64,000 bases of DNA from Sulfurospirillum tamanense (GTDB lineage: Bacteria > Campylobacterota > Campylobacteria > Campylobacterales > Campylobacteraceae): contig NZ_JAFHKK010000003.1 of NCBI RefSeq assembly GCF_016937535.1, positions 62,001-126,000 on the forward strand, read 5' to 3'. The notes beneath the pieces were generated by a model that had not been told where the DNA came from, searched no databases, and was given only the letters and a program-made list of their open reading frames with translations. Made by a program: the position numbers and the translations under genes. Below are positions 1,581 through 64,000 of this stretch, one piece after another (position 1 is the first letter of the stretch; each line of letters begins with the position of its first letter).

Positions 1581-2383
1581 ATAATTTTTTTAATAATCCA
1601 ATCTGGAGTAGAAGCACCTGCTGTAATACCACACTGCTCCTTCCCTTCAAACCACGATGCCTCAAGCTCTCTTTCACTTTCGATTAGGTAACTATCGGAG
1701 CAAAATTCTTTTGAAATATGTAACAACTGCTTGGTATTTGAGGAGTTTTTTCCCCCAACAACTACCATCACATCCGACTCTTTCGAAAGCTCCCTGGCAG
1801 CATCTTGGTTTTCAAAGGTGGCATTACAAATGGTGTTAAATACGCGCACCTCTTTGTAGTGAGAAATCAAATAACTCACAATTTCTTTAAACTCTTCTAC
1901 CTTGCGCGTCGTCTGGGAAACAACCGCAACGCGCGCACTTAGTTTTAAAGCCGCCAGTTCGCTTACATGTAAAACCACATGCACTTTCCCACTTGCGTAG
2001 CTTTTTACCCCTTTAACCTCAGGATGCATCTCATCACCAAAGATAACAATGTCGTATCCCTCTTTGCTCATTTTTTCGCAAATCTTTTGAGGTTTTGTCA
2101 CATAAGGACATGTAGCATCGATAATATCTACTTTCTTTTCTTTTAAAAATTGGAGGTCTTGTTTTGGGATGCCGTGGGTGCGAATAATAGCTTTTTTGGT
2201 GCCTGAGACATGTGAAATATCTTCAAGGGTTTCCACATTAAAGTTTTTCTTAAGACGCATAATCTCTTCATTATTATGAATCAAGGGGCCAATAGTAGAA
2301 GCGTTTTGGGTGCTTTCGGCAATTTTAATCGCCCGCTTTACCCCAAAGCAAAAGCCGTAATTTTTCGCAAGCTTAATATTCAT
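1553..2383 (-). CDS. ispH: 4-hydroxy-3-methylbut-2-enyl diphosphate reductase
   Basis: IspH (LytB) carries out the last step of the non-mevalonate isoprenoid pathway, reducing HMBPP to IPP and DMAPP with a 4Fe-4S cluster. The 276-residue protein has the three cluster cysteines in their usual contexts: Cys12 (GFCFGV), Cys92 (DATCPYV) and Cys186 (NTICNAT). The substrate-site His36 (LIHN) and the His120/Glu122 pair (EMHPE) are also present, so all key residues are intact. The start ATG lies within the last 11 bases of aroA, indicating translational coupling. Residues 138-140 (LHV) are encoded by one copy of the TACATGTA repeat at 1964-1971. Confidence 0.96.
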   Translation of the reverse strand: MNIKLAKNYGFCFGVKRAIKIAESTQNASTIGPLIHNNEEIMRLKKNFNVETLEDISHVSGTKKAIIRTHGIPKQDLQFLKEKKVDIIDATCPYVTKPQKICEKMSKEGYDIVIFGDEMHPEVKGVKSYASGKVHVVLHVSELAALKLSARVAVVSQTTRKVEEFKEIVSYLISHYKEVRVFNTICNATFENQDAARELSKESDVMVVVGGKNSSNTKQLLHISKEFCSDSYLIESERELEASWFEGKEQCGITAGASTPDWIIKKIIEKISNFKV

Positions 2384-3656
2384 GCGTGTTGCTTAGGCAT
2401 TTTAAAAGATCTAAAAAATTTGGGAAAGAAGTACCAACACATTGGGTATCTTCTATCTCCATGCCGCACACAAGCCCAGCAATGGCAAAACTCATCGCAA
2501 TGCGATGATCACCAAAACTTTTGACCTTGGCTTCTCGCAAAATTCCCCCAACAACCTCAAACCCATCTTCAAATTCACGCACTTCTATCCCACATAAGCG
2601 AAGATTAGCCACGGTTGTTGCGATGCGATCGCTCTCTTTGACACGTAGCTCTTTTGCTCCACCAACTCTACTCACGCCCTTGGCACAAGCAAAAGCAATA
2701 GCAAGGGCAGGGATTTCATCAATTAACCACGCAATGTTTTCACTAAGTTCGACACCTTGAAGTGGTGCATACTTTACGCAAATATCACCAACGCTCTCAT
2801 AGGTTTTATCACGCACCGTGTAAGTAATATCTGCACCCATACGCTCAAGCACTTTAAATGCCTCGATGCGTGTGGGGTTTAACAGCACGTGTTTTAATAC
2901 AACTTTGCTTCCTGGAACTATCGCAGCAGCCAGAGCAAAGAAAAAAGCACTAGAAGGGTCCGCAGGAACCGTAATATCTAAAGGATTCAAGGGTGATACC
3001 GGAGGGTAAAGTGTTACATGTAAACCTTCTTGCACAAGATGAACCCCCATGCCTGAAAGCATTTTTTCCGTATGGTCACGGCTGCGTTCTGGCTCCCAAA
3101 AATGGCTAGGTTTTTCACACGTCAAAGCAGCCAAAAGTAACGCACTTTTAACTTGTGCGGAAGCTATGGGGCTTTTGTAATCAAAAGCGCTTAACTGCTT
3201 TCCCCTAATGCCAATAGGCGATAATTCACCGTTTTTACGCCCGTCAATGTGGGCGCCAATACTACGCAAAGGGTCTGCAATACGTCGCATAGGACGCGCG
3301 GCAAGATAAGCATCGCCGTGCAACACAAAAAAACCCTCGCGCGCAGCCAAAAAGCCCATCAAAAGTCGCATGGCAGTTCCCGAATTACCACAATCAAGCA
3401 CAAGGGGTGGTTCTGAGAGTTTTATTGGCGGAGTAATAAGCATCTCTCCTTCTTGCATTTCCACAGTCGCACCAAGCTGCTTAACAATCTCTAATGTACA
3501 TAGCGTGTCTTCCCCCTGAAGGTAGTTGCGTACCTTTGAAGGACGGTCACTCAAAAGGGAAAAAATAGCGCAACGGTGGGAGATAGATTTATCCGGCGCA
3601 ATGGCATCAATACTTTTGGAAAAAGCTGTCGCAGGCTTTACAACATAGGTTTTCAT
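2373..3656 (-). CDS. aroA: 3-phosphoshikimate 1-carboxyvinyltransferase (EPSP synthase)
   Basis: EPSP synthase transfers the enolpyruvyl group of PEP to shikimate-3-phosphate in the chorismate pathway. The 427-residue protein is full length. It shows the N-terminal DKSISHR substrate motif (about 22-28), GNSGTAMR in the first half, and WLIDEIP, KELRVKESDRI and FGDHRIAMS in the second half, all family signatures. It overlaps pheT upstream by the ATGA type of 4-base junction and ispH downstream by 11 bases, so it belongs to the same polycistronic unit. A repeat copy at 3015-3022 encodes the LHV of EGLHVT. Later steps and uses of this pathway (aroE, trpE) lie elsewhere in the window. Confidence 0.96.
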   Translation of the reverse strand: MKTYVVKPATAFSKSIDAIAPDKSISHRCAIFSLLSDRPSKVRNYLQGEDTLCTLEIVKQLGATVEMQEGEMLITPPIKLSEPPLVLDCGNSGTAMRLLMGFLAAREGFFVLHGDAYLAARPMRRIADPLRSIGAHIDGRKNGELSPIGIRGKQLSAFDYKSPIASAQVKSALLLAALTCEKPSHFWEPERSRDHTEKMLSGMGVHLVQEGLHVTLYPPVSPLNPLDITVPADPSSAFFFALAAAIVPGSKVVLKHVLLNPTRIEAFKVLERMGADITYTVRDKTYESVGDICVKYAPLQGVELSENIAWLIDEIPALAIAFACAKGVSRVGGAKELRVKESDRIATTVANLRLCGIEVREFEDGFEVVGGILREAKVKSFGDHRIAMSFAIAGLVCGMEIEDTQCVGTSFPNFLDLLKCLSNTHEY

Positions 3657-5995
3657 CGCATTCCAATGCCCAATGTTACGTGCAGTGTCTTTAGTACCGC
3701 CTCAACAGCTTGACTAATCTCTTTTTCTTCCAGTGTGCGGTCTTTGTGTTGAAAAATAAGCTTAATAGTTAAACTCATTTGCTCCCCAAGGTCTGCACTT
3801 TCAAAGCGGTCAATAGGATAGCACTGGCTAAGGTTGGCAATTCCTGCCTCCTCAATACACGCACGAATGCGCGCATAAGACATGCTTTTAGGCATAAGCA
3901 AGCTTAAATCACGGCTAGAAGAGGGAAATTTTGAATATTCTGAGGCAATCACACGCTCTTTGTGCAAAGCTTCCACGTCTAGTTCCGCAATGTACGTGCG
4001 CGGTAAATCAAAATCTTTTTCTACTTGCGCATGCACTCTGGCTAAAAATCCCACGCAAATCCCATCAACGATAACATTGGCATATTCATAAGGACTGGTT
4101 AGCTTGTTGGTTGGCGCACCTTCCTCAAGGCGTATTTGTCCCACTACTTGAGAAAGCTTGGAGGCAAATCCCATGAGTGAAATAGGGTTTGGTTTACCAT
4201 GGTTTGGCAAAGCAGCCTCTTCGCTTTCGCCGCTAAAAATAAATCCTATTTTAGTTGTTTCATTGCGACTGCGATCAAACACGCGTCCAAGCTCAAACAA
4301 AGGGACGCGCTTTTTGCCATTTTTGATATTTTTACTTGCCGATTCCAATAAATGCAATGCGAGGGTTGAGCGCATTGTGTTGAGCTCACTGGTGATGGGA
4401 TTGGAAAGTTCACGTTTTTTATACACCCCTTTAATCCCATAGTGCTCCTGTTTTTTGCGCTCATCAAACAAATAATGCACGCTCTCAAAAAACCCAACTG
4501 CTGCTGCTCTTTGGCGCAAAGATGTGCGAAATTTATACTGCACATAAGCCTGATTTGTGCGAGATTTTTCTGCAAAAACAAGGGGTTTGGCCGTGATGTT
4601 ATCAATGCCAACCATACGCACAATCTCTTCGCATAAATCTTGCGCATTGAGCACATCGTGACGAAACGCAGGAACGCTTACATGTATAATTTCCTGCTCA
4701 ACCTTCACATGAACTTCAAAACCCAAGCGTTTCAAAATGTCTACCACGTGATTTTTGGGAATCTCTTGCCCAATCATTCCGCTTAGCTCATCAAGGGATA
4801 AAATCACAACAGAAGGCTTAGATTCCCTTGTAAATTTTTGTGCACCAGCATAAAGTGAAACACCTTTTTCTTTTTGGAGTAGTGCCCAAAGGTATTCCAT
4901 TCCAATTTCAAGCTCAGGCTCACTCCCTCTAGCAGAACGGTATAAATGTTTATCGGAGGATAAAGTTTTATTTTCTGCACCAAGGGTTGCCATGCGTTCA
5001 GGAGATGAAAAATTTGCTTCCACGATGACAATTTTGCTCTCATCGGTGGTGCGGCATGTCGCCTCTTGTGAAAATCCCACATACGCCACGCGCCCGTTTA
5101 TGCCAAAAACGGCGTCAATGCCATTGGTATCTTTTTTAAGAGAAACTGTTGCTTTATCTTTTGCATCAACAAAACAGGCGTAATCGTACGCACGCATTAA
5201 AACACCCGTTGCGTATGTGGCGTATTCTATGGCGCGCTCAACTTCACTGGCGAGCTTTATTTCAACTTGCGCTAATCGTAACTCCCTTAACACATTAGGG
5301 CGCATGGATTGTTTTTCAAAAGCCTTGTAAACAAAGGAGCTTTCTACTTTGTCTTCTACATGTAAAGAAAGAATACGCCCAATACCCAACTGGTTTTCTT
5401 CCTCTTCTGTTGCTTCGTGCTGCAAAAGAGGCCGCTTGAAAATCACAGATAAATCTCTGGCTACCCCACGAATGCTCAGACAATCCCCGCGATTGGGCGT
5501 CAAACCAATTTCAATTACATCATCATTTAATGCTTGAATTTCACACAAGGGTTGGCCAATTGTCAAAGTTCCAATGCTTTCATCAAGCACCATAATGCCG
5601 TCATTGATTTTTGGCAAGCCAAGCTCCGTAGAAGAGCAGATCATACCCGTGGAAGTGATGCCGCGCAAAAGCGTGGGGGCAATTTCCAATCCATCAGGCA
5701 AAACAGCTCCTTCAAGGGCTACAGGAACATATTGCCCTTGAGCCACATTAGCTGCCCCGCACACAATCTGAAGTGGAACACTTTGACCTACATCAACTTG
5801 GCATACGTTGAGTTTTTGCGCGTCAGGATGGGGTGTTTTATTTACCACGTATCCCACAACGACCCCCTCAGGGATTCGTTGCTGCGTCAATCCATCAACT
5901 TCTAGCCCAATTGCATTAAGTGTTTCACACAGTGCTTGTGTTGTGATACCTTCGAGGTCAATCCACTCTCTTAGCCATTCTCGTGTTACTATCAT
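3653..5995 (-). CDS. pheT: Phenylalanine--tRNA ligase beta subunit
   Basis: This is the beta subunit of the alpha2-beta2 Phe-tRNA synthetase, which contributes tRNA binding and editing. The 780-residue protein has the N-terminal EMAP-like tRNA-binding domain (about 40-150, with [10 protein letters not shown] and [10 protein letters not shown]), the central B3/B4 and B5 regions and a C-terminal anticodon-binding FDX-ACB domain (about 690-780, with [14 protein letters not shown]). Length is normal. It overlaps pheS upstream and aroA downstream by 4 bases each. Two copies of the repeated palindrome fall inside the gene (4679-4686 and 5357-5364), read as IHV and LHV. Confidence 0.96.
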
Positions 5996-7105: not shown

Positions 7106-7121
7106 GCTTTACATGTAAAGC
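7106..7121. repeat. Iterated palindrome, 16-bp perfect copy
   Basis: GCTTTACATGTAAAGC is a perfect 16-bp palindrome in the pheS/hinT divergent intergenic region. No T-run follows on either strand, so it is not a terminator. It is one of 31 copies of the TACATGTA core in the window. Confidence 0.9.
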
Positions 7122-7549: not shown

Positions 7550-8934
7550 GCCTCCTTTTTCTTAAGCCACTGTTCTATGTGAGTAAGTTGCTCTAGGGTG
7601 CGACTAGTGGCTGTTCCGCCCTCAGAGTTTCGTGCATTCATGGAAGCCTCAAGAGGCAAACACGCCAACACGTCTTCTTGGATGCGGCTGTCAATGCTTG
7701 CTAGTGCTTCATAAGAAAGCTCAGACACATCACACCCTTTTTCTTCTGCTAGGGCAACCACACGACCTGTAATGTGGTGCGCTTCGCGAAAAGGAATGTT
7801 ACACGTACGCACAAGGTAATCTGCCAAATCAGTCGCGCTCAAGTGTCCAACCTTACAAGCAGCACCCATTTTATCTGCGTTAACGCCCAATGTTGCCATC
7901 GCAGCAGTGAGTATTTGCAAAGAAAGTGTCGCGGTTTGAACACTGTCAAACACCCCTTCTTTGTCCTCTTGCATGTCTTTATTGTAAGCCAAAGGCAGTC
8001 CCTTTAGCACACTTAAGAGGCCTATCAAATTTCCATAAACACGGCCCGATTTGCCACGCAATAATTCGGGTACGTCAGGGTTTTTTTTCTGGGGCATGAT
8101 TGAGCTTCCCGTGGAATACTCGTCACTAAAGGTCACAAAACGAAACTCCGAACTTGACCACAAAATCAACTCCTCAGAAAGGCGTGAAATGTGCATCATC
8201 ATGGTCGCAATATTAAATAAAATTTCCAGAGCAAAATCCCGATCACTCACCGTATCAAGGCAGTTGGGAGTCACACCAGCAAAGCCCAAAAGTTTGGCAC
8301 TTAACTGCCTATCAACAGGGTGAGGAGTGCCTGCAAGTGCAGCACACCCAAGAGGCAAAAGATTGTTGCGCTCATAGGAAGATTCAAAGCGTTCAATATC
8401 GCGCTTGAACATATACATGTAAGCCAACAAATGATAAGCAAAATTAATAGGCTGTGCATGCTGCAGATGGGTCATGCCTGGCATTAAAGTTTTCGTATGG
8501 TCCTTTGCAATTTTCAACAAAGTATCAATGAGTGTCTCAAGGTGCCGTGCAATAGCACGGTTGCTGCGAAGCACATAAAGCCGAAAATCCAGCGCTACTT
8601 GGTCATTGCGACTGCGCGCGGTGTGCAGCTTTCCGCCCACATCACCCACAAGCTGGGTGAGACGCTTTTCAATAGCCATATGAATATCTTCATCCTCAAT
8701 GACAAACACAAAATCCCCTGCCTCAATCTCTTTGCGGACTTTTGTCAAACCTTCACACAAAATATCTGTTTCTTCTTGGGTTAAAATCCCTTGGGCGCCA
8801 AGCATGGTAGCATGGGCGATGGACCCTTCAATATCCTCTTGATACAACACGCGATCAAAAGGCAAGGAGGCATTAAATTCGTCTAACAATTTTGCCGCAC
8901 CTTGCTTGAAGCGACCCGACCACATTTTTGACAT
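7546..8934 (-). CDS. argH: Argininosuccinate lyase
   Basis: ArgH cleaves argininosuccinate to arginine and fumarate, the last step of arginine synthesis. The 462-residue protein is of the fumarase/aspartase superfamily, with the [12 protein letters not shown] signature at about 272-283 and [13 protein letters not shown] near residue 110. It sits 33 bases downstream of pckA and probably shares its transcript. The fumarate it releases links it loosely to the C4-acid genes upstream. The argH-pckA order is the same in C. jejuni. One repeat copy (8414-8421) is unusual in being read in the TAC-ATG-TAT (Tyr-Met-Tyr) frame. Confidence 0.96.
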
Positions 8935-11902: not shown

Positions 11903-13717
11903 CTATAATACAATCAAAATTTGGCCATTCTCAACCGATTGGCCCTCAGAAACCTTCACTTGGCTTACAATGCCAGCGCAAGGGGAAGGAATTTCAATTT
12001 CCATTTTCATGGCTTCCAAAACAATCAACACCTCTCCTTCTGCAACACTCTGACCCTCTTTTACAAGAAGTTTAAACACAGATCCAGGCAAACTTGCACA
12101 CACTGTTGCTCCTGAAGAAGGCGCTGACGCTACTTGTGCTGAAGATGTTGCTTGTGTTGTTGCAACGGGTGCAACAGCAGTAATGGCCACATCGGCCCCT
12201 TCTGCCACTTGCACGGCATAGGTTTTTCCATTGACAACAACCGTATAGGCACAAGGTTCTTGATTGGTCTCTTGTGGCGCAGTAGGCGTGACAGAAACAG
12301 GGGCGGGAGCACTATTTTTACGCACATTAACTTTGGCTTCACCTTTTAAATAGGCGATTCCTTTTTCTTTACATGCCGCCGCAATAAAGAGATTTTCCTC
12401 AGTTGCCTCCAACCCCTCTTTTTCAAGAATGGCACGCGTATGGGCCAAGGATTTTGTTTCGTCTTTATCGGCCAAATCAATGGCATGCTCTGTTGTTGGC
12501 TCTAGCTTTAACTGCTTGGCCGCCAAATCTACCACGGAAGCATCGGGAGCCACAGGTGTTTTTCCAAAGTAGCCAAGGACCATTTTGCCATACCCGTCTG
12601 CAATTTTTGTCCACGGTCCAAACATAACATTATTAAACGCTTGCTGGAAGTAAAACTGTGACACAGGGGTGACACTTGTGCCATAGCCTCCTTTTTCTAC
12701 CACTTCGCGCATAGCCTTAATGACTTCAGGAAATTTGTGCAAGATGTTGTTATCGCGCATCATCTGCGTGTTGGCAGTCAAAGCGCCTCCAGGCATGGGT
12801 GAAAAGGGAATCAGTGGCGACACCTGCACCGCTTCTGGTGGCATAAAGTACTCTTTAAGGCACTCTTGGAGGACTTCTTCGTAAGTTAAAATCTTTTCAA
12901 GCTCCAAGCCACCTAGGTCATAAGGCTTTCCCTTGACTGCATGAAGCATGGTTAAAATATCTGGCTGACTTGTGCCACCGCTCACAGGTGCTGCGGCCAA
13001 ATCAATACCATCCACCCCTGCCTCCAAAGCAGCCAAATAACAAGCCACACTCACCCCTGCTGTTTCATGGGTATGGAGCCTTACATGTACAGATTCTGGC
13101 AAGAGTTTTTTTGCCATTTTGATGGTTTCATAAACCTTTTGGGGACTAGATGTTCCGCTGGCGTCTTTAAAACAAATACTGTCATAGGGAATTCCCGCAT
13201 CTAAAATCTCGCGCAGTGTTTTTTCGTAAAAGGCCACATCATGCGCACCCACGCACCCTGGAGGAAGATCCATAAGGGTCACCACCACTTCATGTTTTAG
13301 ACCATAATGAGAGATGCGTTCACCACTATATTTAAGGTTCTCGACATCATTTAGTGCATCAAAATTACGCACGGTAGTTGTGCCGTGTTTTTTAAATAAT
13401 TTTGCGTGCAAATCAACAATTTCACGGCTTCCTGTGTCTAGTGTCACGGTATTTACACCGCGCGCTAGGGTTTGAAGGTTGGCATCTTTTCCAGCTACTT
13501 CGCGGAATTTATCCATCATATCAAACGCATTTTCATTGAGATAGAAAAATAGGCTTTGGAACCTTGCGCCGCCGCCAAACTCAAAGTGTGTGATTCCTGC
13601 TTCTCTTGCTGCAGCAACTGCAGGCATGAAATCTCCCATAAGAACCCTGCCACCGTAAACAGATTGGAATCCGTCTCGGAATGTTGTGTCCATAATATCG
13701 ATGAATTTTTTTGCCAT
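11903..13717 (-). CDS. oadA: Oxaloacetate decarboxylase alpha subunit (biotin carboxyltransferase)
   Basis: OadA transfers the carboxyl group of oxaloacetate to biotin. The 604-residue protein has an N-terminal TIM-barrel carboxyltransferase domain starting with the metal-site motif [10 protein letters not shown] (9-18), the conserved FKDASG and RLHTHETAG segments, and a PYC-OADA domain. A Pro/Ala/Thr/Ser-rich linker (about 420-530) follows, then a C-terminal biotinyl domain with the biotin lysine in EAMKMEI (Lys571). It sits between oadG (20 bases upstream) and oadB. The same type of protein acts as PycB in C. jejuni, so reversal as a carboxylase is possible. The oadB and oadG neighbours favour the decarboxylase. 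Confidence 0.93.
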
Positions 13718-14103: not shown

Positions 14104-14129
14104 AATCCCCTTTACATGTAAAGGGGATT
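14104..14129 (-). terminator. Terminator whose stem is the iterated palindrome
   Basis: A 26-bp perfect palindrome: the TTTACATGTAAA core flanked by AATCCCC and GGGGATT, followed on the minus strand by TTTTT. It lies just after the stop of the FAD/Fe-S dehydrogenase gene and so ends that transcript. It shows the repeat recruited as terminator stem. Confidence 0.8.
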
Positions 14130-18975: not shown

Positions 18976-19020
18976 GGTTTTTTTCCATAGCCTTTACATG
19001 TAATGCTATGGAAAAAAACC
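18976..19020 (-). terminator. Intercistronic hairpin with the repeat in its loop
   Basis: A 16-bp perfect stem (GGTTTTTTTCCATAGC with GCTATGGAAAAAAACC) encloses a 13-base loop holding TTTACATGTAAT. It sits between dctP and dctQ and continues from the stem at 19018-19045. It could act as an attenuator or protect the dctP mRNA 3' end. Confidence 0.65.
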
Positions 19021-20125: not shown

Positions 20126-20139
20126 CTTTACATGTAAAG
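20126..20139. repeat. Iterated palindrome in the dctP leader
   Basis: CTTTACATGTAAAG, a perfect 14-bp copy, lies directly upstream of the dctP ribosome site (GGAGAAAG). Folding of this copy could affect translation of dctP. Confidence 0.9.
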
Positions 20140-42489: not shown

Positions 42490-42499
42490 TTACATGTAA
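42490..42499. repeat. Iterated palindrome between gatC and pilT
   Basis: TTACATGTAA in the sequence CTTTACATGTAACG, just upstream of the pilT ribosome site AAAGGAAC. Confidence 0.85.
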
Positions 42500-52490: not shown

Positions 52491-53738
52491 TTAAATACCA
52501 CTGTTTTTGCCCAACAAAAGATCAAAATAATGGGTGCCGTTTTCATACGTATACGCCATTTTCATTCCATGCAATGCAAGAATATTGGTGACAATATACA
52601 GACCCAATCCCATGCCATTTTTGGTCTGTTCAGCAGTCGTCACAAAGGCTTCGCAATAGTGCTCAATAGAGTGTTTTAATGCAGGACCATGATTGCTAAT
52701 GCGCAATCCCTTTTCCGTGGTCGTTACGGCTACCTTTTTGTCGCTGCTGTATTTTAAGGCGTTGTCTATGAGGTTTTTAATAGCCAAAGCCAAAAGCTCA
52801 AAATCAGCCTTAACGAGAAAGTCATGGCAAAGGTTTACATGTAAACGTTCTTGCATCTGGACTTCATCGAGCATCAGTAAATCACACCCTTGCTCCACTA
52901 CCAAAGACAAGGGGCACTCTTGGAGGTTTACACTGTAGCTTTTAGAGACCAGTTGTTCGATTTTTGAAAATTCATTAATCAACAAATCCAAGCGCTCAAA
53001 AATACCCACCAAGCGCTTTTTTTGTACATCACCCTTGACCATTTCTGCAACGATGCGCCCTTTTCCGATGGGCGTTTTTAGCTCGTGCATAATAGTGCGC
53101 AAAAAAAGCTGGCGAGAGCGAATCAGGTCTCGTATTTTTTTTACCGCGCGGTCAAACTCGTTGGCCACTTCGGCAATCTCATCTTTTTTATCACTCTTAC
53201 ATGTAATGTCCATGTCCCCGCTTGCAAACCGACGAATGCTTTGGCTCAAAGGCTTCAAGGGATAAATACTGCGCATCACTGAGACGTATATAGACACCAA
53301 AACCGCCAAAGCAAGTGCCAAGGCTATCCACAAAAAATCATCCGTGTGTTTGATGTTTTGATTTTCAAAAACCACACGCACCGCAGGATTGTCCAGAAGT
53401 AAATAGTACCGCTTGTTGTAAACAATTGAAGAAAGAGAACCCAGTGAAGTTGTGCGATGAAAGGTAACTTCCCCTTTTTCAAGAACTGCTGCCATGAGGT
53501 TGCGATTGCTCACCTGCTTAAGGCCAAAGTGACGAAAGTAGGCTTCAATGTCTTTAGGAGGGGTGTTGTTTTGGTGCAATTGAAAAAGATAATTCACGGC
53601 CTGAAACTGACGCTGCTGCATCACTTCTAGCGCCCGCTGGGTTTGCATGTTGTCAAGCAGCAAAAACAACAAACACACCAACGCAAAAGAGATGCCAAAA
53701 ATAGCACTAATGCGACTACTTAAAGAGTGGCGATTCAT
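52491..53738 (-). CDS. racS: Sensor histidine kinase, RacS type
   Basis: A 415-residue inner-membrane sensor kinase. Two transmembrane helices (about 10-30 and 135-157) flank a short periplasmic sensor of about 105 residues. A HAMP region, the phospho-His near 216 in RTIMHELKTPIGKG and an ATPase domain with LIDNALKYS and NGMGLGLYIV follow. The partner racR overlaps by 4 bases. Position between recR, racR and dnaJ matches the C. jejuni racRS locus, involved there in temperature-dependent growth and colonisation. The envelope-stress gene spy in front suggests it senses periplasmic stress. Two palindrome copies lie inside it (52836, 53198). Confidence 0.88.
   Translation of the reverse strand: MNRHSLSSRISAIFGISFALVCLLFLLLDNMQTQRALEVMQQRQFQAVNYLFQLHQNNTPPKDIEAYFRHFGLKQVSNRNLMAAVLEKGEVTFHRTTSLGSLSSIVYNKRYYLLLDNPAVRVVFENQNIKHTDDFLWIALALALAVLVSIYVSVMRSIYPLKPLSQSIRRFASGDMDITCKSDKKDEIAEVANEFDRAVKKIRDLIRSRQLFLRTIMHELKTPIGKGRIVAEMVKGDVQKKRLVGIFERLDLLINEFSKIEQLVSKSYSVNLQECPLSLVVEQGCDLLMLDEVQMQERLHVNLCHDFLVKADFELLALAIKNLIDNALKYSSDKKVAVTTTEKGLRISNHGPALKHSIEHYCEAFVTTAEQTKNGMGLGLYIVTNILALHGMKMAYTYENGTHYFDLLLGKNSGI
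52833..52846. repeat. Iterated palindrome, 14-bp copy in racS
   Basis: GTTTACATGTAAAC is a perfect 14-bp palindrome whose outer base pair is G-C in place of the usual C-G, read as RLHVN. A second core lies at 53198-53205. Confidence 0.9.
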
Positions 53739-55065: not shown

Positions 55066-56196
55066 TTGGAATTAGATTATTATGAAATACTAGAAATCAG
55101 TCGCGATGCTGATGGTGCTACCATTAAAAAGGCTTACCGAAAGCTTGCCATGAAGTTTCACCCCGACCAAAATCAAGGGGACAAACAAGCTGAAGAAAAA
55201 TTCAAACAAATCAACGAAGCCTACCAAGTCCTTAGCGATACCCAAAAACGCTCTGTTTATGACCGTTACGGCAAAGCAGGATTAGAGCGTCAAGGCTTTA
55301 GTAACTACTCTGAACAAAATTACGAAGACATTATGGACGATTTGGGGTCGATTTTTGAATCGGTCTTTGGTGGCGGATTTAGTGGCTTTGGAACACAAGG
55401 GCGTCGTCAAAAACCCCGCAAGTACACGCTAGACCTTGAAACCTCCCTTACCCTTGATTTTAACGAAGCAGTTTTTGGTTGTACTAAAGAGGTCACCTAC
55501 CGCACCAAAGCACCGTGCAACACGTGTGAGGGCACGGGCTCAAAAGACAAAAAACGCTCTACATGTAAAGAGTGCGGGGGCAAGGGGCAAGTTTTCTTCC
55601 GCCAAGGGTTTATGACTTACTCCCAAACATGTGGTGCGTGCCAAGGCACGGGCGAAACTGTCACTAATCCTTGCCAAGTGTGCCATGGCAAGGGCTTTAG
55701 CGAAAAAGAAGCGACCATTACTGTAGATATTCCCGAGGGCATTGATTCGGGAAATCGCATTCGCGCAGCCCAAAAAGGCAACGTCGATGAAGAGGGACGA
55801 AAGGGCGATTTGTATGTGCACATTCAAGTCAAAGAAGACGACCACTTTGTTAGGCATAACGATGATATTTATATTGAAGTTCCTGTCTTTTTTACCCAAG
55901 CTGTTTTGGGCGAAACCCTAACCATCCCAACCCTTCGTGGAGAAAAAGAGTTAAAACTCCCTGCTGGCGCCAAAGACAAACAGCAGTTTTTGTTTGAAGG
56001 AGAAGGGGTTCAAAACGTCCACACAAGACGCAAGGGTAACTTGGTAGCTCAAATCAGTCTACGCTACCCCAAAAAACTCACCGAAAAACAGACCGAACTC
56101 TTACAGGAACTCCAAGCCTCTTTTGGCTATGAAAGCACACCTCATGAAAAAAGTTTTGAGGGTGTTTTTGACAAAATTAAAAATTGGTTTAGTTAA
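55066..56196 (+). CDS. dnaJ: Chaperone DnaJ
   Basis: DnaJ is the Hsp40 partner of DnaK. The 376-residue protein has a J-domain with the intact HPD motif (32-34), a Gly/Phe-rich region (FGGGFSGFG), four CxxCxGxG zinc motifs ([32 protein letters not shown]) and a C-terminal client domain. The start is a TTG eight bases after AGGA, and [12 protein letters not shown] fits the family N-terminus. The first Cys of the second zinc motif is encoded by a copy of the iterated palindrome (55560-55567). Confidence 0.96.
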
Positions 56197-56285: not shown

Positions 56286-56295
56286 TTACATGTAA
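56286..56295. repeat. Iterated palindrome in the Pgp1-like leader
   Basis: TTACATGTAA, preceded by a long T-run and followed by the ribosome site CGAGGTG. It sits near the mRNA 5' end. Confidence 0.85.
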
Positions 56296-56306
56296 CGAGG
56301 TGAATA

Positions 56307-57602
56307 GTGCGGATTGTTTTGACTCTTTTTCTAATCCATGGGTTGCTCTTTGGGGCATTGAGGCATTTTGGCATCTATGAGATGGAGGGAAAAGAACAAG
56401 GCAATAAGCTTCTTGTTATTGGCGGCATTCATGGGGACGAGCCCGGAGGGTATTTTGCACCCGCGCTCGTGGTGCAACACTACACCATTAAAAAAGGCTC
56501 CTTGCTTGTTGTGCCCAACCTAAACTTCGACAGTATCGTTCACAACCGTCGTGGTATTTATGGAGACATGAACCGCAAGTTCGATCACGTTGACCAAACT
56601 GATCCTGATTATGAACTTGTAACCCACATTAAATCTCTCATCACCGACCCCAGTGTGGACTTTATCATTAATCTACACGATGGACGAGGCTTTTACCGCA
56701 CCACGTGGGAGAGTGCCATTTTTAATCCGCGCGCATGGGGACAGGCCTATATCATTGATCAAAAAACCATCGATGATGCAAAATTTGGCAATTTGGATGA
56801 AATCACTGCATTAATGGCAAACAAGCTCAACCAAAGTGAGCTAGCCGAAAACCACCATCAGTTTGACGTTAAAAATACTTACACCAAAGACAAAGACGAG
56901 CAAATGCGCATGTCATTGACATACTTTGCCATCACCCATCTCAAGCCTGCCCTTGCCATTGAAACAAGCAAAAACATTACCGAACTAGACACCAAAGTCC
57001 TTTATCAGCTCCTCTCTATGGAAGCACTTCTAAACCACATGGGCATTGAATTTGAACGAAATTTTGAGTTGACCCGCGAAACAGTAAATCACCTTCTCGC
57101 CCAATACGGAACTCTTGCTATCAACAATAAATTTGAACTCTCTTTGAACGACTTACGACCTGCTTTGCATTTTGTACCTATGCGCAAAACTGGCAACGTT
57201 TTTGAGTTTTCCCATCCTCTTGGCACAACCATTGACCGTGGCAGTTACCATCAAATTATGATAGGCAACATCCCTGTTGCAAGACTCTATCCGCAACATT
57301 TCTCCCTTACATGTAAAGCAACCGCTGCCACCATAGAAAGGGATGGCAACCAAGAGCGTGTTTCTTTTGGTCAAACAGTACGGGTTAACAAAACCTTTAA
57401 GGTTTTGGCAGATAAGGATTTTCGGGTCAATCTTATTGGATTTGTCACCAAAGAACGCGATTCGCAAGATGGCATCACGGTGCAAAAAAGTGATTTTATC
57501 TCCCGTTTTTCCACTGATCAATCCGAAACTTCTTTTCGCGCCGAATTTTACGACAATGGGGATTTTTGTGGCACCATTACGGTTGTATTTGAAGGGCCTT
57601 GA
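56307..57602 (+). CDS. Peptidoglycan DL-carboxypeptidase (Pgp1/Csd4-like, M14/M99)
   Basis: A 431-residue periplasmic metallopeptidase. It has a short signal peptide (about 1-16) and a carboxypeptidase domain with the zinc pair His42/Glu45 in GGIHGDEPGG, the third ligand His124 in NLHDGRGFY and a catalytic Glu probably in AIETSK. Two C-terminal beta domains follow. Pgp1 (C. jejuni) and Csd4 (H. pylori) trim tripeptides and so give cells helical shape. The H. pylori enzyme is reported to use Gln for the first ligand; here it is His. The GTG start follows GAGGTGAATA. It faces the lytic transglycosylase mltA with a 26-base overlap. Confidence 0.88.
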   Translation: MRIVLTLFLIHGLLFGALRHFGIYEMEGKEQGNKLLVIGGIHGDEPGGYFAPALVVQHYTIKKGSLLVVPNLNFDSIVHNRRGIYGDMNRKFDHVDQTDPDYELVTHIKSLITDPSVDFIINLHDGRGFYRTTWESAIFNPRAWGQAYIIDQKTIDDAKFGNLDEITALMANKLNQSELAENHHQFDVKNTYTKDKDEQMRMSLTYFAITHLKPALAIETSKNITELDTKVLYQLLSMEALLNHMGIEFERNFELTRETVNHLLAQYGTLAINNKFELSLNDLRPALHFVPMRKTGNVFEFSHPLGTTIDRGSYHQIMIGNIPVARLYPQHFSLTCKATAATIERDGNQERVSFGQTVRVNKTFKVLADKDFRVNLIGFVTKERDSQDGITVQKSDFISRFSTDQSETSFRAEFYDNGDFCGTITVVFEGP

Positions 57603-58641: not shown

Positions 58642-61289
58642 TATTTTAATGCTCCCCAGTGTTTACCTATAGCAACAGAGGTTTTTAAAGGCACCCGCAA
58701 GGCAAAAATCTCCTCCATGCACTGCTTTGCACGTTTAGCAAAAGCCTCCGCCTCCTCTTTGGGCACTTCAAAAATCAATTCATCGTGAATTTGTAATAAT
58801 AGCTTCGCTTTTTCTCCCAAAACATTTTTATCCATCTTCAGCATTGCTAATTTAATCAAATCTGCCGCACTTCCTTGAAACACGGTGTTGACCGACTCGC
58901 GCTCATACGCCGCAAGCAGCATTGGGGTTGCGTTGCCATAATCAAAATAGCGCCGTCTGCCTAGCAACGTTTCTACAAATCCTTGTTCTTTGGTTTTTTC
59001 TTGGACGGATTTTAAATACTCTTTCACTGTTGGAAAAGAGTCAAAATAGCTTTGAATGTATCCTGCGGCCTCTTTGGAGGGAATACCTAGCGTTTGCCCG
59101 AGTTTTCGCGCGCCCATGCCATAAAGCAAGCCAAAGTTAATACTCTTGGCAATGTTACGTTTAGCCGAAGCTTCTTCCTCGCCAAAAAGTTTCACTGCTG
59201 TTTCTTGGTGAATGTCTTTTCCTTCACTAAAGGCGTTCACAAGCGCAGGGTCTTGGCTAAAGTGCGCCAACAACCGCAGTTCAATTTGCGAATAATCAAT
59301 CCCAACCAACACCCACTCAGGCTCTGCTACGAACCCTTCCCTAACCGCACGCCCTAGCTCAGTACGCACAGGGATGTTTTGCAAGTTTGGCTCTTTGGAG
59401 CTGAGTCTTCCCGTGGATGTTCCCGTTTGCAAAAAGTTGGTATGAACCCGTGAGTTCTTGTCCTTGGCAGCAAGTTTTAACAAAGGTTCAAAATAGGTGG
59501 ATTTGAGTTTATACAATTCGCGGTATTCAAGCAACAACGCAATGGCGGGATGGGCATCTTTAAGCCCCTCCAAGACGCTCTCATCCGTGCTGTAACCGCT
59601 TTTTGTTTTTTTTGCCGCAGGCAATTTTAACGTTTCAAACAACACAGCACCCAGCTGTTTGGTGGAGTTGATGTTAAACTCACTTCCTGTGAGCTGATGA
59701 ATCTCTTTTGTCAGCACCCCTAGTCTGGCTTCTGCGTCTTCAAGCAAGGAGCGTAAAAAACGCTGGTCCACCTTAATGCCTCGCTCTTCCATTTCCATCA
59801 ATGTCAACACAAAAGGAAACTCCACCGCTTTTGCCAAATCTATCATGGAAGGATCAAGCATTTGGATGAGTTTATGGTAGAGGCGTAAGGTCATCCATGC
59901 GTCTTCTCCTGCGTACACGCATGCTTCTTCTAACGCCACGCTAGCAAAGGTTTCACCCCGTTTTACCACCGAACTAAAGGAGACCATTTCGTGACCAAAA
60001 AAACGCTTAGCCAACGCATCAAGCCCCACTAAAGACCCCGGAGAAAGAAGCCACGCCAAAATCATGGTATCGGCGTATGGCACGGGCGGGAGGAGGTCGA
60101 AATTGCGATGCACAACTTTAAAGTCAAACTTACCATTTTGCACCACAAGCTTACATGTAAAGAGTTTTTCAATGGCTTTGCGCGCTACGTCTTTGGAGAT
60201 TTGTTCTGGCACGCCCAAATAGTTGTGCGCCAGAGGAACATAATACCCCCGATGCGCCTCAAACGCAAAGGAAAATCCCACTATTTTAGCTGACTGGGTA
60301 TCGAGCCCATCCGTTTCGGTATCAAAAGCCACCACTGTCTCAGGCGTAAGGTTTTGCATGATTTCTTCAAGCATGGCGGCATCTTTAACCAAAATTGCCT
60401 CAAAGGTTTGTACTTCTTTTTGGGGCACTTTTGGAGCGCTACCAAGACGGCTTAGAATGCGTCTTAGCTCATACTTTTCCAACTCATCCCTAATGGCAAG
60501 TAGCGGATTTTCTTGGGGAAATTTAAATCGCTCAAATCGTGCAGCCACATCCAAAGTATCTACAAGAGCCGTAAGTTGCTTGCTTAAAAAGGCATTTTCC
60601 CTGCCCTCTTCCAGTAATTTTTTATTGCGCACATTGGAAATGTTGTCGAGGTTTGCATAAATCCCCTCAAGGGTTTTAAACTCATCCAATAGTTTTTTTG
60701 CACCCCGAGGCCCAATGCCTCGCACCCCAGGGATATTATCTGAGGCGTCCCCTATTAACGAAAGATAATCTTGAATTTGACAAGGAAGGACGCCAAACTT
60801 TTCTACGCAGGCGTCTGCGTTAATTTCACTTTTTTTCAATGGGTCATAAATCACCACACGGCCATCGTCAATCAATTGATACAAGTCTTTGTCATGGGTC
60901 ACCACGCGTACTTTCATGTCATATTTTTTAGCAAATGCGACCGCTGAAGCAATAATATCATCAGCTTCATAGCCCTCCATAAAACACTTGTTAAAACCCA
61001 TTTTCTCAATCCACTCAATGGCAATAGGAAGCTGGGTTTGCAAATCTTGCGGCGGAGCAGGACGGTTGGCCTTGTAGGCGGGGTCTAGGGTGTGACGAAA
61101 GGTTTTTCCTTTGGCATCAAGGGCAAAAAAGATGTAATCAGTGCCATGCTCCTCATTAAGTGTGGCAATAAAATTGGCAAAACCTGTGAGCAATCCCGTG
61201 GGGAGCCCTTGTGAATTAGTAAGGTTTGGCAATGCAAAGTAGTTGCGAAAAAAAAATCCAAAGGTATCAATAATCGTTAAAGTTTTCAT
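58641..61289 (-). CDS. polA: DNA polymerase I
   Basis: PolA fills gaps in repair and removes RNA primers. The 882-residue protein has the 5'-3' exonuclease (about 1-290, with TIIDTFGFFFRNYFAL and GDASDNIPGVRGIGP) and the 3'-5' exonuclease with VAFDTETDGLD. The polymerase domain has TSTGRLSSKEPNLQNIP, DYSQIELRLLAHFS and QIHDELIFEVP. The FDTETDG motif suggests proofreading is active. The ATG at 61289 begins the conserved N-terminus; the longer reading frame upstream is in the HDOD gene. A repeat copy (60152) encodes FTCK. Confidence 0.96.
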   Translation of the reverse strand: MKTLTIIDTFGFFFRNYFALPNLTNSQGLPTGLLTGFANFIATLNEEHGTDYIFFALDAKGKTFRHTLDPAYKANRPAPPQDLQTQLPIAIEWIEKMGFNKCFMEGYEADDIIASAVAFAKKYDMKVRVVTHDKDLYQLIDDGRVVIYDPLKKSEINADACVEKFGVLPCQIQDYLSLIGDASDNIPGVRGIGPRGAKKLLDEFKTLEGIYANLDNISNVRNKKLLEEGRENAFLSKQLTALVDTLDVAARFERFKFPQENPLLAIRDELEKYELRRILSRLGSAPKVPQKEVQTFEAILVKDAAMLEEIMQNLTPETVVAFDTETDGLDTQSAKIVGFSFAFEAHRGYYVPLAHNYLGVPEQISKDVARKAIEKLFTCKLVVQNGKFDFKVVHRNFDLLPPVPYADTMILAWLLSPGSLVGLDALAKRFFGHEMVSFSSVVKRGETFASVALEEACVYAGEDAWMTLRLYHKLIQMLDPSMIDLAKAVEFPFVLTLMEMEERGIKVDQRFLRSLLEDAEARLGVLTKEIHQLTGSEFNINSTKQLGAVLFETLKLPAAKKTKSGYSTDESVLEGLKDAHPAIALLLEYRELYKLKSTYFEPLLKLAAKDKNSRVHTNFLQTGTSTGRLSSKEPNLQNIPVRTELGRAVREGFVAEPEWVLVGIDYSQIELRLLAHFSQDPALVNAFSEGKDIHQETAVKLFGEEEASAKRNIAKSINFGLLYGMGARKLGQTLGIPSKEAAGYIQSYFDSFPTVKEYLKSVQEKTKEQGFVETLLGRRRYFDYGNATPMLLAAYERESVNTVFQGSAADLIKLAMLKMDKNVLGEKAKLLLQIHDELIFEVPKEEAEAFAKRAKQCMEEIFALRVPLKTSVAIGKHWGALK

Positions 61290-61296
61290 AAAAATC

Positions 61297-62115
61297 CTAG
61301 TATGAAACGTGTTCGATGAGTTGTTCAATGGCTTCAGCAAATGCCATTTCATCCAGTTCAAACCGCTGCACTTCACGCAGGGCCAACGTAATGTTTTGTT
61401 CATTCATGGGGCCGTTAATAGCCACGGCAGTTTTAGCTACATGTAAAGACGCTGCAAAGCGCTTGGTTTCCAAATCAGGCGCGTTATTTGGGGTGTCGCT
61501 GTAGCGAATGAATTGAATCATCGTTTCATCAAACCCCCAATGCTCAAACACAGCAGCGGTCACAAGAGCCGTAGTGGTGCCCACAAAAGCACGTTCGACT
61601 TCCGAGAGGTTGTGTGCCGTTGTCACTTGCGCCTTAAAGGGAGTCACTTCATCACTACGCACGATTTGCTGGGCAATCAAAATTTTTCCCGTCTCTTGCA
61701 ATAAACCACACAAAAACAACAAATCCTGCCTAGGCATATCGAGCTTTTTGTACCACTGGCGCATGAGCATCCCTTGGAGATTAGAAGTTTCCACAAAGGC
61801 TTCTGGAGTGACGCCATAGGGTGCAGTGTCCATCTGAAGGAGCTTTTTAACCGAAATCCCTGTCACCAGTGCCCTTGTGGTGGTCATACCAAAAAGTGAA
61901 ACTGCTTGAAGTACGCTTTTAATCTCTCGGGAAAATCCATACAAAGGCGAATTAGCAAGACGCAACAAGCTTGCAACAAGCATGGGGTCTTTTTCGATGA
62001 CTTTGGCGAGCATTTGCGTGGTGCCGTTTTCGTCACTACAAATGGCATTGATTTTTTGAAAACTCTCAGGGAGTGGCGGAAGTGCCTTGATTTGTTCAAC
62101 CATTGAAATCAGCAT
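61297..62115 (-). CDS. HDOD-domain protein
   Basis: A 272-residue protein made of one HDOD domain, a catalytically dead relative of HD phosphohydrolases, often seen in signalling proteins. It contains LPPLPESFQKINAICSDEN, the ANSPLYGFSREIKSVLQAVSLFG core (about 53-76) and FLCGLLQETGKILIA. The His-Asp metal pair of true HD enzymes is missing, as is normal for HDOD. The start follows the uvrA stop by one base with AAGGA inside the uvrA end. The partner domain (for example GGDEF or receiver) is absent. A repeat copy (61438) encodes SLHVAK. Confidence 0.88.
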   Translation of the reverse strand: MLISMVEQIKALPPLPESFQKINAICSDENGTTQMLAKVIEKDPMLVASLLRLANSPLYGFSREIKSVLQAVSLFGMTTTRALVTGISVKKLLQMDTAPYGVTPEAFVETSNLQGMLMRQWYKKLDMPRQDLLFLCGLLQETGKILIAQQIVRSDEVTPFKAQVTTAHNLSEVERAFVGTTTALVTAAVFEHWGFDETMIQFIRYSDTPNNAPDLETKRFAASLHVAKTAVAINGPMNEQNITLALREVQRFELDEMAFAEAIEQLIEHVSY

Positions 62116-62116
62116 C

Positions 62117-64000
62117 TTAGTTTCCTTTTCCTAATGTTTTTGCTAAAAATTTTCCCGTATAACTGCCTGTTTTTGCGTGGGTTTTTGCTAACATTTTCGG
62201 GGTTCCTTGGGAGACAATCCGTCCACCTTTATCCCCGCCTTCTGACCCCATGTCAATCACATAGTCACAATTAGAAATCACGTCCAGGTTGTGCTCAATC
62301 ACTAAAACCGAATTGCCCAAATCCGTCAAATGGTGCAACACTTTCACAAGCCTGTCCACGTCGGCAAAATGCAACCCCGTAGTGGGCTCATCCAGTACAT
62401 ACAAGGTCTTGCCCGTGTCCGAACGGCTTAGCTCTTTGGCAAGCTTAATGCGCTGTGCCTCGCCACCACTGAGGGTGATGGCATTTTGTCCAAGGGTAAT
62501 GTACCCTAATCCCACATCATAAAGGGTTTGAAGTTTTTGAGCAATCTTAGGAATAGCTTTAAAAAATGCAAGCGCTTCATCCACGCTCATGTTAAGCACG
62601 TCCGAAATGGACTTACTTTTGTATTTAATCTCCAAAGTCTGAGGGTTATACCGCGCGCCATGGCACGCATCGCACTTGACCATAATGTCTGGTAAAAAGT
62701 GCATTTCAATCTTAATCTCACCCTCCCCTTGGCACTTTTCACACCGGCCACCTTTGACGTTAAAAGAAAAGCGTCCGACCTTGTAGCCACGAATTTGCGC
62801 TTCCTTGGTCTTAACAAACAACGCGCGAATCTCATCCATCACGCCAGTGTAGGTCGCGGGATTGCTTCTAGGCGTGCGACCGATGGGGCTTTGGTCAAGG
62901 TAAATGACTTTGTCCAAGTGCTCCAAGCCTTCACACTCCACCCCTTGCACTTTTTTGACCTTGCGCGCACGGTTGAGCATCTCTTTGGCAACAGGCAACA
63001 AGGTTTGTAGGATGAGTGAACTTTTCCCACTTCCGCTCACGCCCGAAATGCCTACTAAATTCCCCAAAGGAATCTTTACATGTAAAGCTTTGAGGTTGTT
63101 TATCGTCACATTAGAAAGAGAAATCCACTCTTTTTGCGGGCGGTTTTGCGGGTAGTACGACCCTTTTTGGCCTGAGAGATACTGGGCGGTGAGGGTGTTG
63201 CTTTTGTATAAATCTTCCACCGTGCCCGCAAAGACAATCTCTCCACCAAATTTCCCAGCTGCTGGACCGATGTCTACCACAAAATCTGCGGCGTCGATGG
63301 TCTCTTTGTCGTGCTCTACCACAATGACGGTGTTGCCCTTTTGTTGCAAGTTTCTGAGGGTTTTGATGAGTTTTAGCGTGTCGCGTTCGTGCAGTCCAAT
63401 GCTAGGTTCATCGAGCACGTACATCACGCCCGTCAATCCGCTTCCAATCTGCGAAGCGATGCGAATGCGTTGGGCTTCGCCGCCGCTGATGGTGCGCGCG
63501 TCTCGCCCAAGGCTCAAATAGCCCAGTCCCACGTCGTACAAAAAATGCAACCGCTCGTTGATTTCTTTTAGCACAGGAGCGGCGACCACTTGCTCTTGGG
63601 GACGCAAATAGGAAAAATTTTCAGCATTGTTAAAAAACGCCACGCTCATTTCAATGGGCATAGAAAGCACCGAAGCAATGCCTTGGTCTGTTATGCGCAC
63701 CGCTAGGCTTTCTTGACGAAGTCTAGCCCCTCCACAACGGTCACACACTTTTTCACTCATGTATTCGCCCAAATCTTTTTCGTCTTTGAGCATGTCGTAG
63801 GCCAGTTTGATGACCCCTTCCCATTTTCGGGTAAGTTTGTGGCGCTTCCATAAAAACTCCACAGGCTCCACACCGCCGTGCAAGATGGCTTTTTTTTCAT
63901 GCTCTTCCAAGCTCTCAAAAGGCACCGTAGTGTCGATCTTGGCGGTTTTACAAAAGGCGGTGAGGAATTTAAAATAATACCCCTTATTAAACCCGTACAT
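62117..64000 (-). CDS. uvrA: UvrABC system protein A (5' part outside window)
   Basis: UvrA is the damage-recognition ATPase of nucleotide excision repair. The visible 627 residues are the C-terminal two thirds of a protein normally of about 940. They include the second half of the first zinc finger (CDRCGGARL), the first ABC signature ISGGEAQRI and Walker B YVLDEPSIGLHERD. The second Walker A GVSGSGKSSLIL, the second zinc finger (CEKCQGEGE...CDACHGARY) and the second signature LSGGEAQRIKLAKELS are also seen. The right edge of the window cuts the gene. A perfect palindrome copy (63074-63087) encodes ALHVK. Confidence 0.96.
   Translation of the reverse strand: MYGFNKGYYFKFLTAFCKTAKIDTTVPFESLEEHEKKAILHGGVEPVEFLWKRHKLTRKWEGVIKLAYDMLKDEKDLGEYMSEKVCDRCGGARLRQESLAVRITDQGIASVLSMPIEMSVAFFNNAENFSYLRPQEQVVAAPVLKEINERLHFLYDVGLGYLSLGRDARTISGGEAQRIRIASQIGSGLTGVMYVLDEPSIGLHERDTLKLIKTLRNLQQKGNTVIVVEHDKETIDAADFVVDIGPAAGKFGGEIVFAGTVEDLYKSNTLTAQYLSGQKGSYYPQNRPQKEWISLSNVTINNLKALHVKIPLGNLVGISGVSGSGKSSLILQTLLPVAKEMLNRARKVKKVQGVECEGLEHLDKVIYLDQSPIGRTPRSNPATYTGVMDEIRALFVKTKEAQIRGYKVGRFSFNVKGGRCEKCQGEGEIKIEMHFLPDIMVKCDACHGARYNPQTLEIKYKSKSISDVLNMSVDEALAFFKAIPKIAQKLQTLYDVGLGYITLGQNAITLSGGEAQRIKLAKELSRSDTGKTLYVLDEPTTGLHFADVDRLVKVLHHLTDLGNSVLVIEHNLDVISNCDYVIDMGSEGGDKGGRIVSQGTPKMLAKTHAKTGSYTGKFLAKTLGKGN
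63074..63087. repeat. Iterated palindrome, 14-bp copy in uvrA
   Basis: CTTTACATGTAAAG shortly after the region coding the second Walker A, read on the minus strand as LHVK. Confidence 0.9.

What the first reader, a model, noticed from the sequence alone, without database searches (positions are those of the whole stretch)
1963..63087. A highly iterated palindrome, CTTTACATGTAAAG, spread across the whole window
TACATGTA occurs 31 times in 64 kb; an 8-mer should occur about once, or up to two times given the A/T-rich composition. Core starts: 1964, 3015, 4679, 5357, 7110, 8414, 13082, 14113, 14362, 16687, 18995, 20129, 23190, 28107, 31495, 31657, 33291, 35332, 36941, 39646, 42491, 46031, 51781, 52836, 53198, 55560, 56287, 57308, 60152, 61438, 63077. 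Eight are exact 12-mers TTTACATGTAAA and six are exact 14-mers CTTTACATGTAAAG. TACATG is hardly ever seen without the following TA (I noticed only two or three near misses). Copies lie about every 2 kb in unrelated genes and gaps, which does not fit one transcription factor. Candidates: a HIP1-like iterated palindrome, a DNA-uptake or self-recognition signal, a methylation target (CATG core), or a nucleoid-protein site. I do not know of a published description.
Basis: partly seen in the sequence, partly recalled or inferred. Interest (0 to 1): 0.88.

Follow-up and report, generated by a model that had tools for sequence, protein, structure and literature searches.

The report
Genome-wide palindrome centring helically phased DNA
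A group of free-living relatives of Campylobacter carries about 1,500 copies per genome of one exact 8-letter palindrome, TACATGTA, each at the centre of about 140 letters of DNA whose A/T content rises and falls once per helix turn, as if a protein bends or wraps the DNA there; no description of it was found in the papers searched.

Summary
TACATGTA occurs 31 times in the window, 1,488 times in the genome (reversed control 27), and is the only strongly over-represented 8-bp palindrome in 462 kb of this genome. It is dense (up to about 600/Mb) in the window's genus, the Sulfurospirillum family and some of the Sulfurimonas family, and absent in most other Campylobacterota sampled. Recognition is all-or-none: one-letter variants sit at background in dense genomes. 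Sites lie in genes and gaps, are evenly spread, and some are conserved between genera.

New here: A/T content around the sites oscillates symmetrically with a period of 11.36 bp (95% 11.15-11.55), locked to the dyad, strongest to about 65 bp on each side, in coding and intergenic copies and in most other motif-rich genomes tested. Control words, one-letter variants and cyanobacterial HIP1 lack it. The sites therefore behave like dyads of bent or wrapped nucleoprotein complexes; gyrase is the leading but unproven candidate. Many of these genomes also carry an orphan adenine methyltransferase of the NlaIII (CATG) family, but three motif-dense genomes lack it, so methylation is associated and not shown to be required. 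Elhai's mismatch-repair model is disfavoured: no MutL was found.

The parts
1964..1971 (.). TACATGTA site
   Evidence: exact match; TTACATGTAA
3015..3022 (.). TACATGTA site
   Evidence: exact match
4679..4686 (.). TACATGTA site, in pheT ORF
   Evidence: exact match; pheT by NCBIfam
5357..5364 (.). TACATGTA site, in pheT ORF
   Evidence: exact match
7107..7120 (.). CTTTACATGTAAAG, full 14-mer, intergenic
8414..8421 (.). TACATGTA site
   Evidence: exact match
13082..13089 (.). TACATGTA site
   Evidence: exact match
14110..14123 (.). CTTTACATGTAAAG, full 14-mer, intergenic; palindrome extends further
   Evidence: 9 paired bases beyond the core on each side
14362..14369 (.). TACATGTA site
   Evidence: exact match
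16687..16694 (.). TACATGTA site
   Evidence: exact match
18995..19002 (.). TACATGTA site, intergenic
20126..20139 (.). CTTTACATGTAAAG, full 14-mer, intergenic
23190..23197 (.). TACATGTA site, in sensor histidine kinase ORF
28107..28114 (.). TACATGTA site
   Evidence: exact match
31495..31502 (.). TACATGTA site (TTTACATGTAAA)
31657..31664 (.). TACATGTA site
   Evidence: exact match
33291..33298 (.). TACATGTA site
   Evidence: exact match
35329..35342 (.). CTTTACATGTAAAG, full 14-mer
36938..36951 (.). CTTTACATGTAAAG, full 14-mer
39646..39653 (.). TACATGTA site
   Evidence: exact match
42491..42498 (.). TACATGTA site, intergenic
46031..46038 (.). TACATGTA site, in lysS ORF
51781..51788 (.). TACATGTA site
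   Evidence: exact match
52836..52843 (.). TACATGTA site (TTTACATGTAAA)
53198..53205 (.). TACATGTA site
   Evidence: exact match
55560..55567 (.). TACATGTA site
   Evidence: exact match
56287..56294 (.). TACATGTA site, intergenic
57308..57315 (.). TACATGTA site
   Evidence: exact match
60152..60159 (.). TACATGTA site, in DNA polymerase I ORF
61438..61445 (.). TACATGTA site, called intergenic by a simple gene caller
63074..63087 (.). CTTTACATGTAAAG, full 14-mer

Best explanation
Each TACATGTA (consensus CTTTACATGTAAAG) is the dyad of a selected protein-DNA site of about 140 bp. A dimeric protein reads the 8-bp core all-or-none and the next few bases by preference. The DNA on both sides is bent or wrapped around it, and A/T-rich minor grooves placed at whole helical turns from the dyad help the wrap. 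About 1,500 such sites, one per 1.7 kb and rather evenly spaced, would organise or set the supercoiling of the chromosome. The period is above 10.5 bp and the span close to the 130-bp DNA gyrase footprint, so gyrase, or a partner that loads it, is my leading candidate for the wrapping protein (about 0.3 on its own). In many carriers an orphan methyltransferase of the NlaIII (CATG) family probably methylates the core and marks or tunes the site. SHOWN: genome-wide excess, strict core, flank preferences, even spread, conservation of sampled sites, phase-locked periodic flanks, and the association with the orphan methyltransferase. INFERRED: that a protein wraps the DNA, its identity, the methylation, and the function.
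For: Phasing: A/T content flanking the sites oscillates after frame-preserving correction; power 2.05 against 0.075 (sd 0.042, maximum 0.186) for 60 same-size sets of WWSWWSWW control words, and in other genomes 1.06 against 0.052 (maximum 0.115). Bootstrap period 11.36 bp (11.15-11.55); A/T peaks at whole turns from the dyad in coding and intergenic copies, and at nearly the same phase in G389, G291, G366, G237 and G321. Strongest within about 65 bp, fading by about 90. One-off words have no phase (z 0.0). Strict core: one-offs 95 observed, 100 expected. The two halves vary independently, so it is not a hairpin. The 255 sampled copies are more evenly spread than chance (variance/mean 0.42 in 20-kb bins, P 0.006); no promoter or terminator bias. 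Sites at homologous positions in G000 and G151 (3 of 3), two of them also in another genus. E. coli gyrase: symmetric 130-bp motif with 10.75-bp periodic flanks (PMC6379681); gyrases of three species show 10-11 bp periodic flanks (PMC12324340).
Against: Gyrase in three tested species prefers -4G and -2A around the cut (PMC12324340); with CATG as the 4-base stagger the motif has T or C at -4 and T at -2, so the core does not fit. Gyrase is essential and universal, but the motif is patchy even within one genus. The sites of G269 (50 copies) and G247 (22) show no clear phasing. Genome-wide A/T periodicity of about 11 bp exists anyway, so sites could track intrinsic curvature and not a protein wrap. 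The period here (11.36) is longer than that of E. coli gyrase (10.75). No binding data exist.
Confidence: 0.5

Rival explanations
1. HIP-type methylation mark. An orphan NlaIII-family methyltransferase methylates adenine in CATG within the palindrome, and selection or biased repair accumulates methylated sites, as proposed for HIP1 in cyanobacteria.
For: An NlaIII-family D12 methyltransferase with intact motifs (FCDLFAGTG, DPPYN) is present as an orphan in the window's genus, in its relative G152 in a similar gene context, and in most motif-dense genomes. Its relatives in several motif-poor species sit beside ICEA/NlaIII-type endonucleases. Genomes with it: median 323 sites/Mb, without 99 (P 0.0006); in genus g31, 520 against 122 (P 0.007). 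G187 has a different iterated palindrome, TATCATGATA, with the same CATG centre. G395 is dense and keeps only the last third of the gene.
Against: G237, G269 and G321 are dense without any D12 methyltransferase, and G237 and G269 also lack a PF01555 one. The within-genus permutation test is only P 0.065. CATG outside the motif is not enriched in motif-dense genomes. No MutL in 21 genomes, so Elhai's mismatch-repair scheme lacks a core part of its machinery. HIP1 shows no phased flanks.
Confidence: 0.25
2. DNA-uptake or self-recognition signal. Competent cells prefer DNA that carries the (possibly methylated) palindrome, and transformation drives it through the genome, as with DUS/USS or the methylated RAATTY of Campylobacter jejuni.
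For: ComEC is present in all 68 genomes examined; density (one per 1.7 kb) is like that of uptake sequences (own knowledge); sites are in genes and gaps with intergenic excess (23% against 9% of bases). Related Campylobacter is reported to discriminate methylated DNA (own knowledge). Phased A/T flanks are also part of the Haemophilus uptake motif (own knowledge).
Against: ComEC is equally present in motif-free genomes. Known uptake sequences show one-off forms at 3x (Haemophilus) and 5.8x (Neisseria) (PMC1939737); here 0.95x. They are asymmetric; this is a palindrome with flanks phased on both sides over about six turns.
Confidence: 0.2
3. A set of binding sites for one global transcription regulator.
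For: A dimer-type palindrome with independent half-site preferences.
Against: About 1,500 copies; 76% lie inside genes and intergenic copies show no promoter orientation.
Confidence: 0.03
4. Chance, composition bias, a mobile repeat or an assembly artefact.
For: None found.
Against: 41-88x excess in the sample; found in dozens of genomes with reversed-pattern controls at background; sequence preference ends within about 4 bp of the core apart from the weak A/T phasing; sites align without indels between G000 and G151.
Confidence: 0.01

Closest known systems
HIP1 (GCGATCGC) and alternate HIPs of cyanobacteria (Elhai 2015, PMC4390886)
   Same: A short palindrome iterated through genes and gaps at about 1 per 1-2 kb, varying fast between species, with associated orphan methyltransferases whose targets lie inside the palindrome; alternate palindromes replace it in some species.
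   Different: Different sequence (CATG centre, AT-rich), different phylum, one-off forms at background where HIP1 has about 11x (PMC1939737), helically phased flanks that HIP1 lacks, no MutL, and dense genomes without the methyltransferase.
DNA gyrase binding motif and strong gyrase sites (PMC6379681)
   Same: Symmetric about a dyad, roughly 130-140 bp, A/T against G/C phased with the helix on both sides, period above 10.5 bp.
   Different: The gyrase motif is degenerate with no strict 8-bp core; its preferred bases near the cut (-4G, -2A) are not those of TACATGTA; period 10.75 against 11.36; I know of no genome with about 1,500 near-identical copies.
DNA uptake sequences (DUS/USS) of Neisseria and Haemophilus
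   Same: Over-represented short motif spread over the genome; Haemophilus USS has phased AT-rich flanks (own knowledge).
   Different: Those are asymmetric and have over-represented one-off forms; this is palindromic, all-or-none, with flanks on both sides.
NlaIII / HpyI (IceA) restriction-modification family
   Same: The candidate methyltransferase belongs to the sequence family found beside ICEA-family endonucleases.
   Different: In the motif-rich genomes examined it has no endonuclease neighbour and sits among housekeeping genes; specificity not tested.

Membership tests
Highly iterated palindromes (HIP class) | Palindromic oligomer strongly over-represented genome-wide in genes and gaps | tested here: met
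Highly iterated palindromes (HIP class) | A methyltransferase specific for part of the palindrome in every HIP-rich genome | tested here: inconclusive
   orphan NlaIII-family D12 enzyme in most dense genomes but absent in G237, G269, G321; another type of enzyme not excluded; specificity not measured
Highly iterated palindromes (HIP class) | One-off forms common, deviations mostly at the ends (HIP1) | tested here: not met
   0.95x in G000, 0.83-1.12x in G366, G237, G269, G247 and 1.31x in G389; end deviations enriched only in G291 and G454
HIP1 itself | Flank behaviour: HIP1 has no helically phased flanks (measured here as a comparator) | tested here: not met
   HIP1 power 0.047 against random 0.070; TACATGTA 2.05 against 0.075
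DNA uptake sequence | Asymmetric motif with over-represented one-off forms | tested here: not met
   comparison values in PMC1939737
DNA uptake sequence | Preferential uptake by competent cells | not testable with these tools
   ComEC present in 68 of 68 genomes, rich and poor
Gyrase binding site | Symmetric 130-bp region with phased A/T and G/C on both sides | tested here: met
   (period 11.36 against the published 10.75)
Gyrase binding site | Conserved base preferences around the cut (-4G, -2A) | tested here: not met
   motif has T/C at -4 and T at -2 if CATG is the stagger
Gyrase binding site | Bound and cleaved by gyrase | not testable with these tools
   needs Topo-Seq or footprinting
NlaIII-type CATG methyltransferase (candidate enzyme) | D12-class sequence family shared with ICEA-linked enzymes | tested here: met
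   PF02086 E 1.5e-30; homologues beside PF05315 endonucleases
NlaIII-type CATG methyltransferase (candidate enzyme) | Methylates CATG | not testable with these tools
   family-based inference only

The most novel reading that the evidence does not exclude
A previously undescribed chromosome-wide system in Campylobacterota: about 1,500 identical palindromic dyads per genome, each centring a roughly 140-bp helically phased wrap, read all-or-none by one protein (a specialised gyrase or a new nucleoid-wrapping protein) and marked by a domesticated CATG-family methyltransferase, forming a regular, species-tunable grid along the chromosome.
Probability: 0.35. Interest if true: 0.95.

Novelty: new variant of a known kind. 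Interest (0 to 1): 0.86.

Why it matters
What highly iterated palindromes are for has been open since HIP1 was described in 1995. Here is one outside cyanobacteria with two features that HIP1 lacks and that narrow the options: a strictly read core, and dyad-anchored helical phasing over about 140 bp that points to DNA bending or wrapping. It occurs in culturable groups (the Sulfurospirillum and Sulfurimonas families), with related genomes that have few or no copies, so binding, methylation and uptake can be tested directly. If the wrapper is gyrase, it would be a genome densely seeded with near-identical gyrase sites, and a way to study how supercoiling is distributed.

Tried and rejected
Hairpin or RNA element: the two halves vary independently and only a few intergenic copies have extended stems. 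Transcription regulator: no promoter bias. Elhai's mismatch-repair ratchet: no MutL. A simple methyltransferase-presence rule: fails in G237, G269 and G321. A possible decayed methyltransferase gene in G374 (E 0.0015, 7 stops) had no matching neighbours and is not used as evidence. ComEC as a correlate: universal. Bacteroidota with related methyltransferases: no motif enrichment. Solved-structure and fold searches gave only a generic methyltransferase fold. Paper searches for the motif, for uptake sequences and for Sulfurospirillum methylomes found no description; the library lacks most subscription papers. The one-off excess in G225 shrank from 1.50 to 1.25 with more sequence, so decay of sites after loss is only suggested.
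Full report
OBSERVATION. The whole genome (2.46 Mb, 63 contigs) has 340 TTTACATGTAAA against 1 for the reversed pattern and 1,488 TACATGTA against 27. There, 255 copies stand against 6.2 expected at order 2, or 2.9 at order 3 with cores masked. No other 8-bp palindrome exceeds 3x. The flanks read (G/C) C (T/C) T before the core and the complement after it.

TAXONOMIC SPREAD. In the window's family (f1), its own genus (G151, 604/Mb) and G152 (546/Mb) are dense; two members of genus g10 are dense (G141, G142), others weak; most other genera have none. Family f20 carries the motif in nearly every genome examined (genus g31 up to 576/Mb), and family f16 is patchy.

SHARP CORE. In G000 the 24 one-letter variants total 95, against 100 expected; the ratio is 0.83-1.12 in G366, G237, G269 and G247 and 1.31 in G389. 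Published values for one-off forms, measured against simpler expectations, are about 3x in Haemophilus, 5.8x in Neisseria and 11x for HIP1 in Synechocystis (PMC1939737); the matching zero-order figure for G000 is 0.43x. So only the exact 8-mer is favoured. In G291 the outer base is relaxed (GACATGTA 51 against 2.7) and in G454 too (CACATGTA 24 against 3.1; AACATGTA 23 against 8.2), while G187 lacks TACATGTA enrichment but has TATCATGATA (16 against 1.35). Specificity thus changes between species around a constant CATG.

PLACEMENT. With a simple gene caller, 23% of the sites are intergenic against 9% of the sequence, without promoter or terminator orientation bias; in genes the frame reading L-H-V dominates (122 of 193). 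The largest gaps include a run of small genes that looks like a ribosomal-protein operon and a stretch that looks like rpoB-rpoC-fusA; these gene identities rest on size and order only. Counts are under-dispersed. In a 3-kb alignment G000 and G151 share all three sites at a mean column identity of 92%; the two coding sites are also present in G152, where the methyltransferase is about 60% identical, both encoding T-C-K.

PHASED FLANKS. This was not in the finding. After subtracting the composition at frame-preserving shifts, A/T content around the sites oscillates: excess at about -7, -19, -30, -41, -52 and -63 from the core. Power is 2.05 against a control mean of 0.075 and maximum of 0.186, and 1.06 against 0.052 in the pooled other genomes. 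The period is 11.36 bp (95% 11.15-11.55); phase is 16 degrees for coding and 6 degrees for intergenic copies, where zero means A/T peaks at whole turns from the dyad. Individually, G389 (t 7.2), G291 (6.1), G454 (3.9, with a shifted phase of 55 degrees), G366 (2.9) and G321 (2.7) agree; G237 is borderline (1.9); G269 (0.7) and G247 (0.5) do not show it. One-off words, other CATG words and HIP1 in two cyanobacterial plasmids do not show it. The signal fades between 65 and 90 bp. The amplitude is a few per cent, so it is statistical and cannot be seen at a single site.

METHYLTRANSFERASE. G000 encodes a D12-class adenine methyltransferase (G000:C40:8025-8990, outside the window) with an SDR gene and a small ORF upstream and an MFS gene downstream; it is 90% identical in G151 and 60% in G152, with the SDR gene nearby in all three. 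Related enzymes (about 37-44%) occur in most of family f20 and part of f16, with housekeeping-type neighbours where examined (for example a gene that looks like tsaD in f16). In G172, G415, G128, a Campylobacter jejuni record and others the neighbour is an endonuclease; the two representatives tested both match ICEA, PF05315, the NlaIII/IceA family that cuts CATG (own knowledge). In G128 plain CATG is strongly depleted (0.25x), as expected beside such an endonuclease. Presence of the enzyme goes with density, but not perfectly: G237, G269 and G321 lack it, G395 has only its C-terminal third, and several low-density genomes have it. I read this as an associated mark and not the primary reader.

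MECHANISM. Dyad symmetry, independent half-sites, a strict core and about 140 bp of phased DNA are what one expects of a dimeric protein that reads the core and bends or wraps the flanks. A period above 10.5 bp suits a right-handed wrap, and gyrase is the known bacterial case, with a symmetric 130-bp motif and 10.75-bp periodic flanks (PMC6379681). Against gyrase, the preferred bases around its cut are not those of the motif, and the motif is patchy while gyrase is universal. A nucleoid protein or a co-factor that loads gyrase would fit as well. Phased intrinsic curvature without a wrap is also possible, since these genomes have a weak general periodicity near 11 bp.

LIMITS. Detailed statistics rest on samples (462 kb of G000; about 30-260 kb of the others). 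Genomes are related, so association tests overstate independence; the within-genus test gave P 0.065. Methylation, binding and uptake were not measured. Only PF02086, PF01555 and the NlaIII-like family's own alignment were searched in the exceptional genomes, so another methyltransferase could be present there.

Noticed in passing
G000 sample (462 kb), also G128, G237, G269, G321, G366, G454: GATC is strongly under-represented (367 against 1,370 expected in G000), suggesting past or present GATC-targeting restriction in many of these genomes.
   Followed up: no
L161-L168 and L082-L084 (G187): A second iterated palindrome, TATCATGATA, in a genome whose TACATGTA count is at background.
   Followed up: partly
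L290-L296 (G145, G148): Plain CATG is over-represented 1.3-1.6x in two genomes with an orphan NlaIII-family methyltransferase and few TACATGTA.
   Followed up: no
L533: A methyltransferase gene cut down to its last third, between an ORF resembling lpxB and a foreign-looking ORF, in motif-dense G395.
   Followed up: partly
G171:C2:1692-2597: A second NlaIII-family methyltransferase on the other of two contigs, possibly a plasmid.
   Followed up: no
window 14113, and G000 sample C1:159415 and C2:10205: A few intergenic copies lie in longer perfect palindromes, in part with T-runs, and may double as terminators.
   Followed up: partly
L507-L531: NlaIII-family methyltransferases are carried by several viral contigs, some of them very large.
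   Followed up: no
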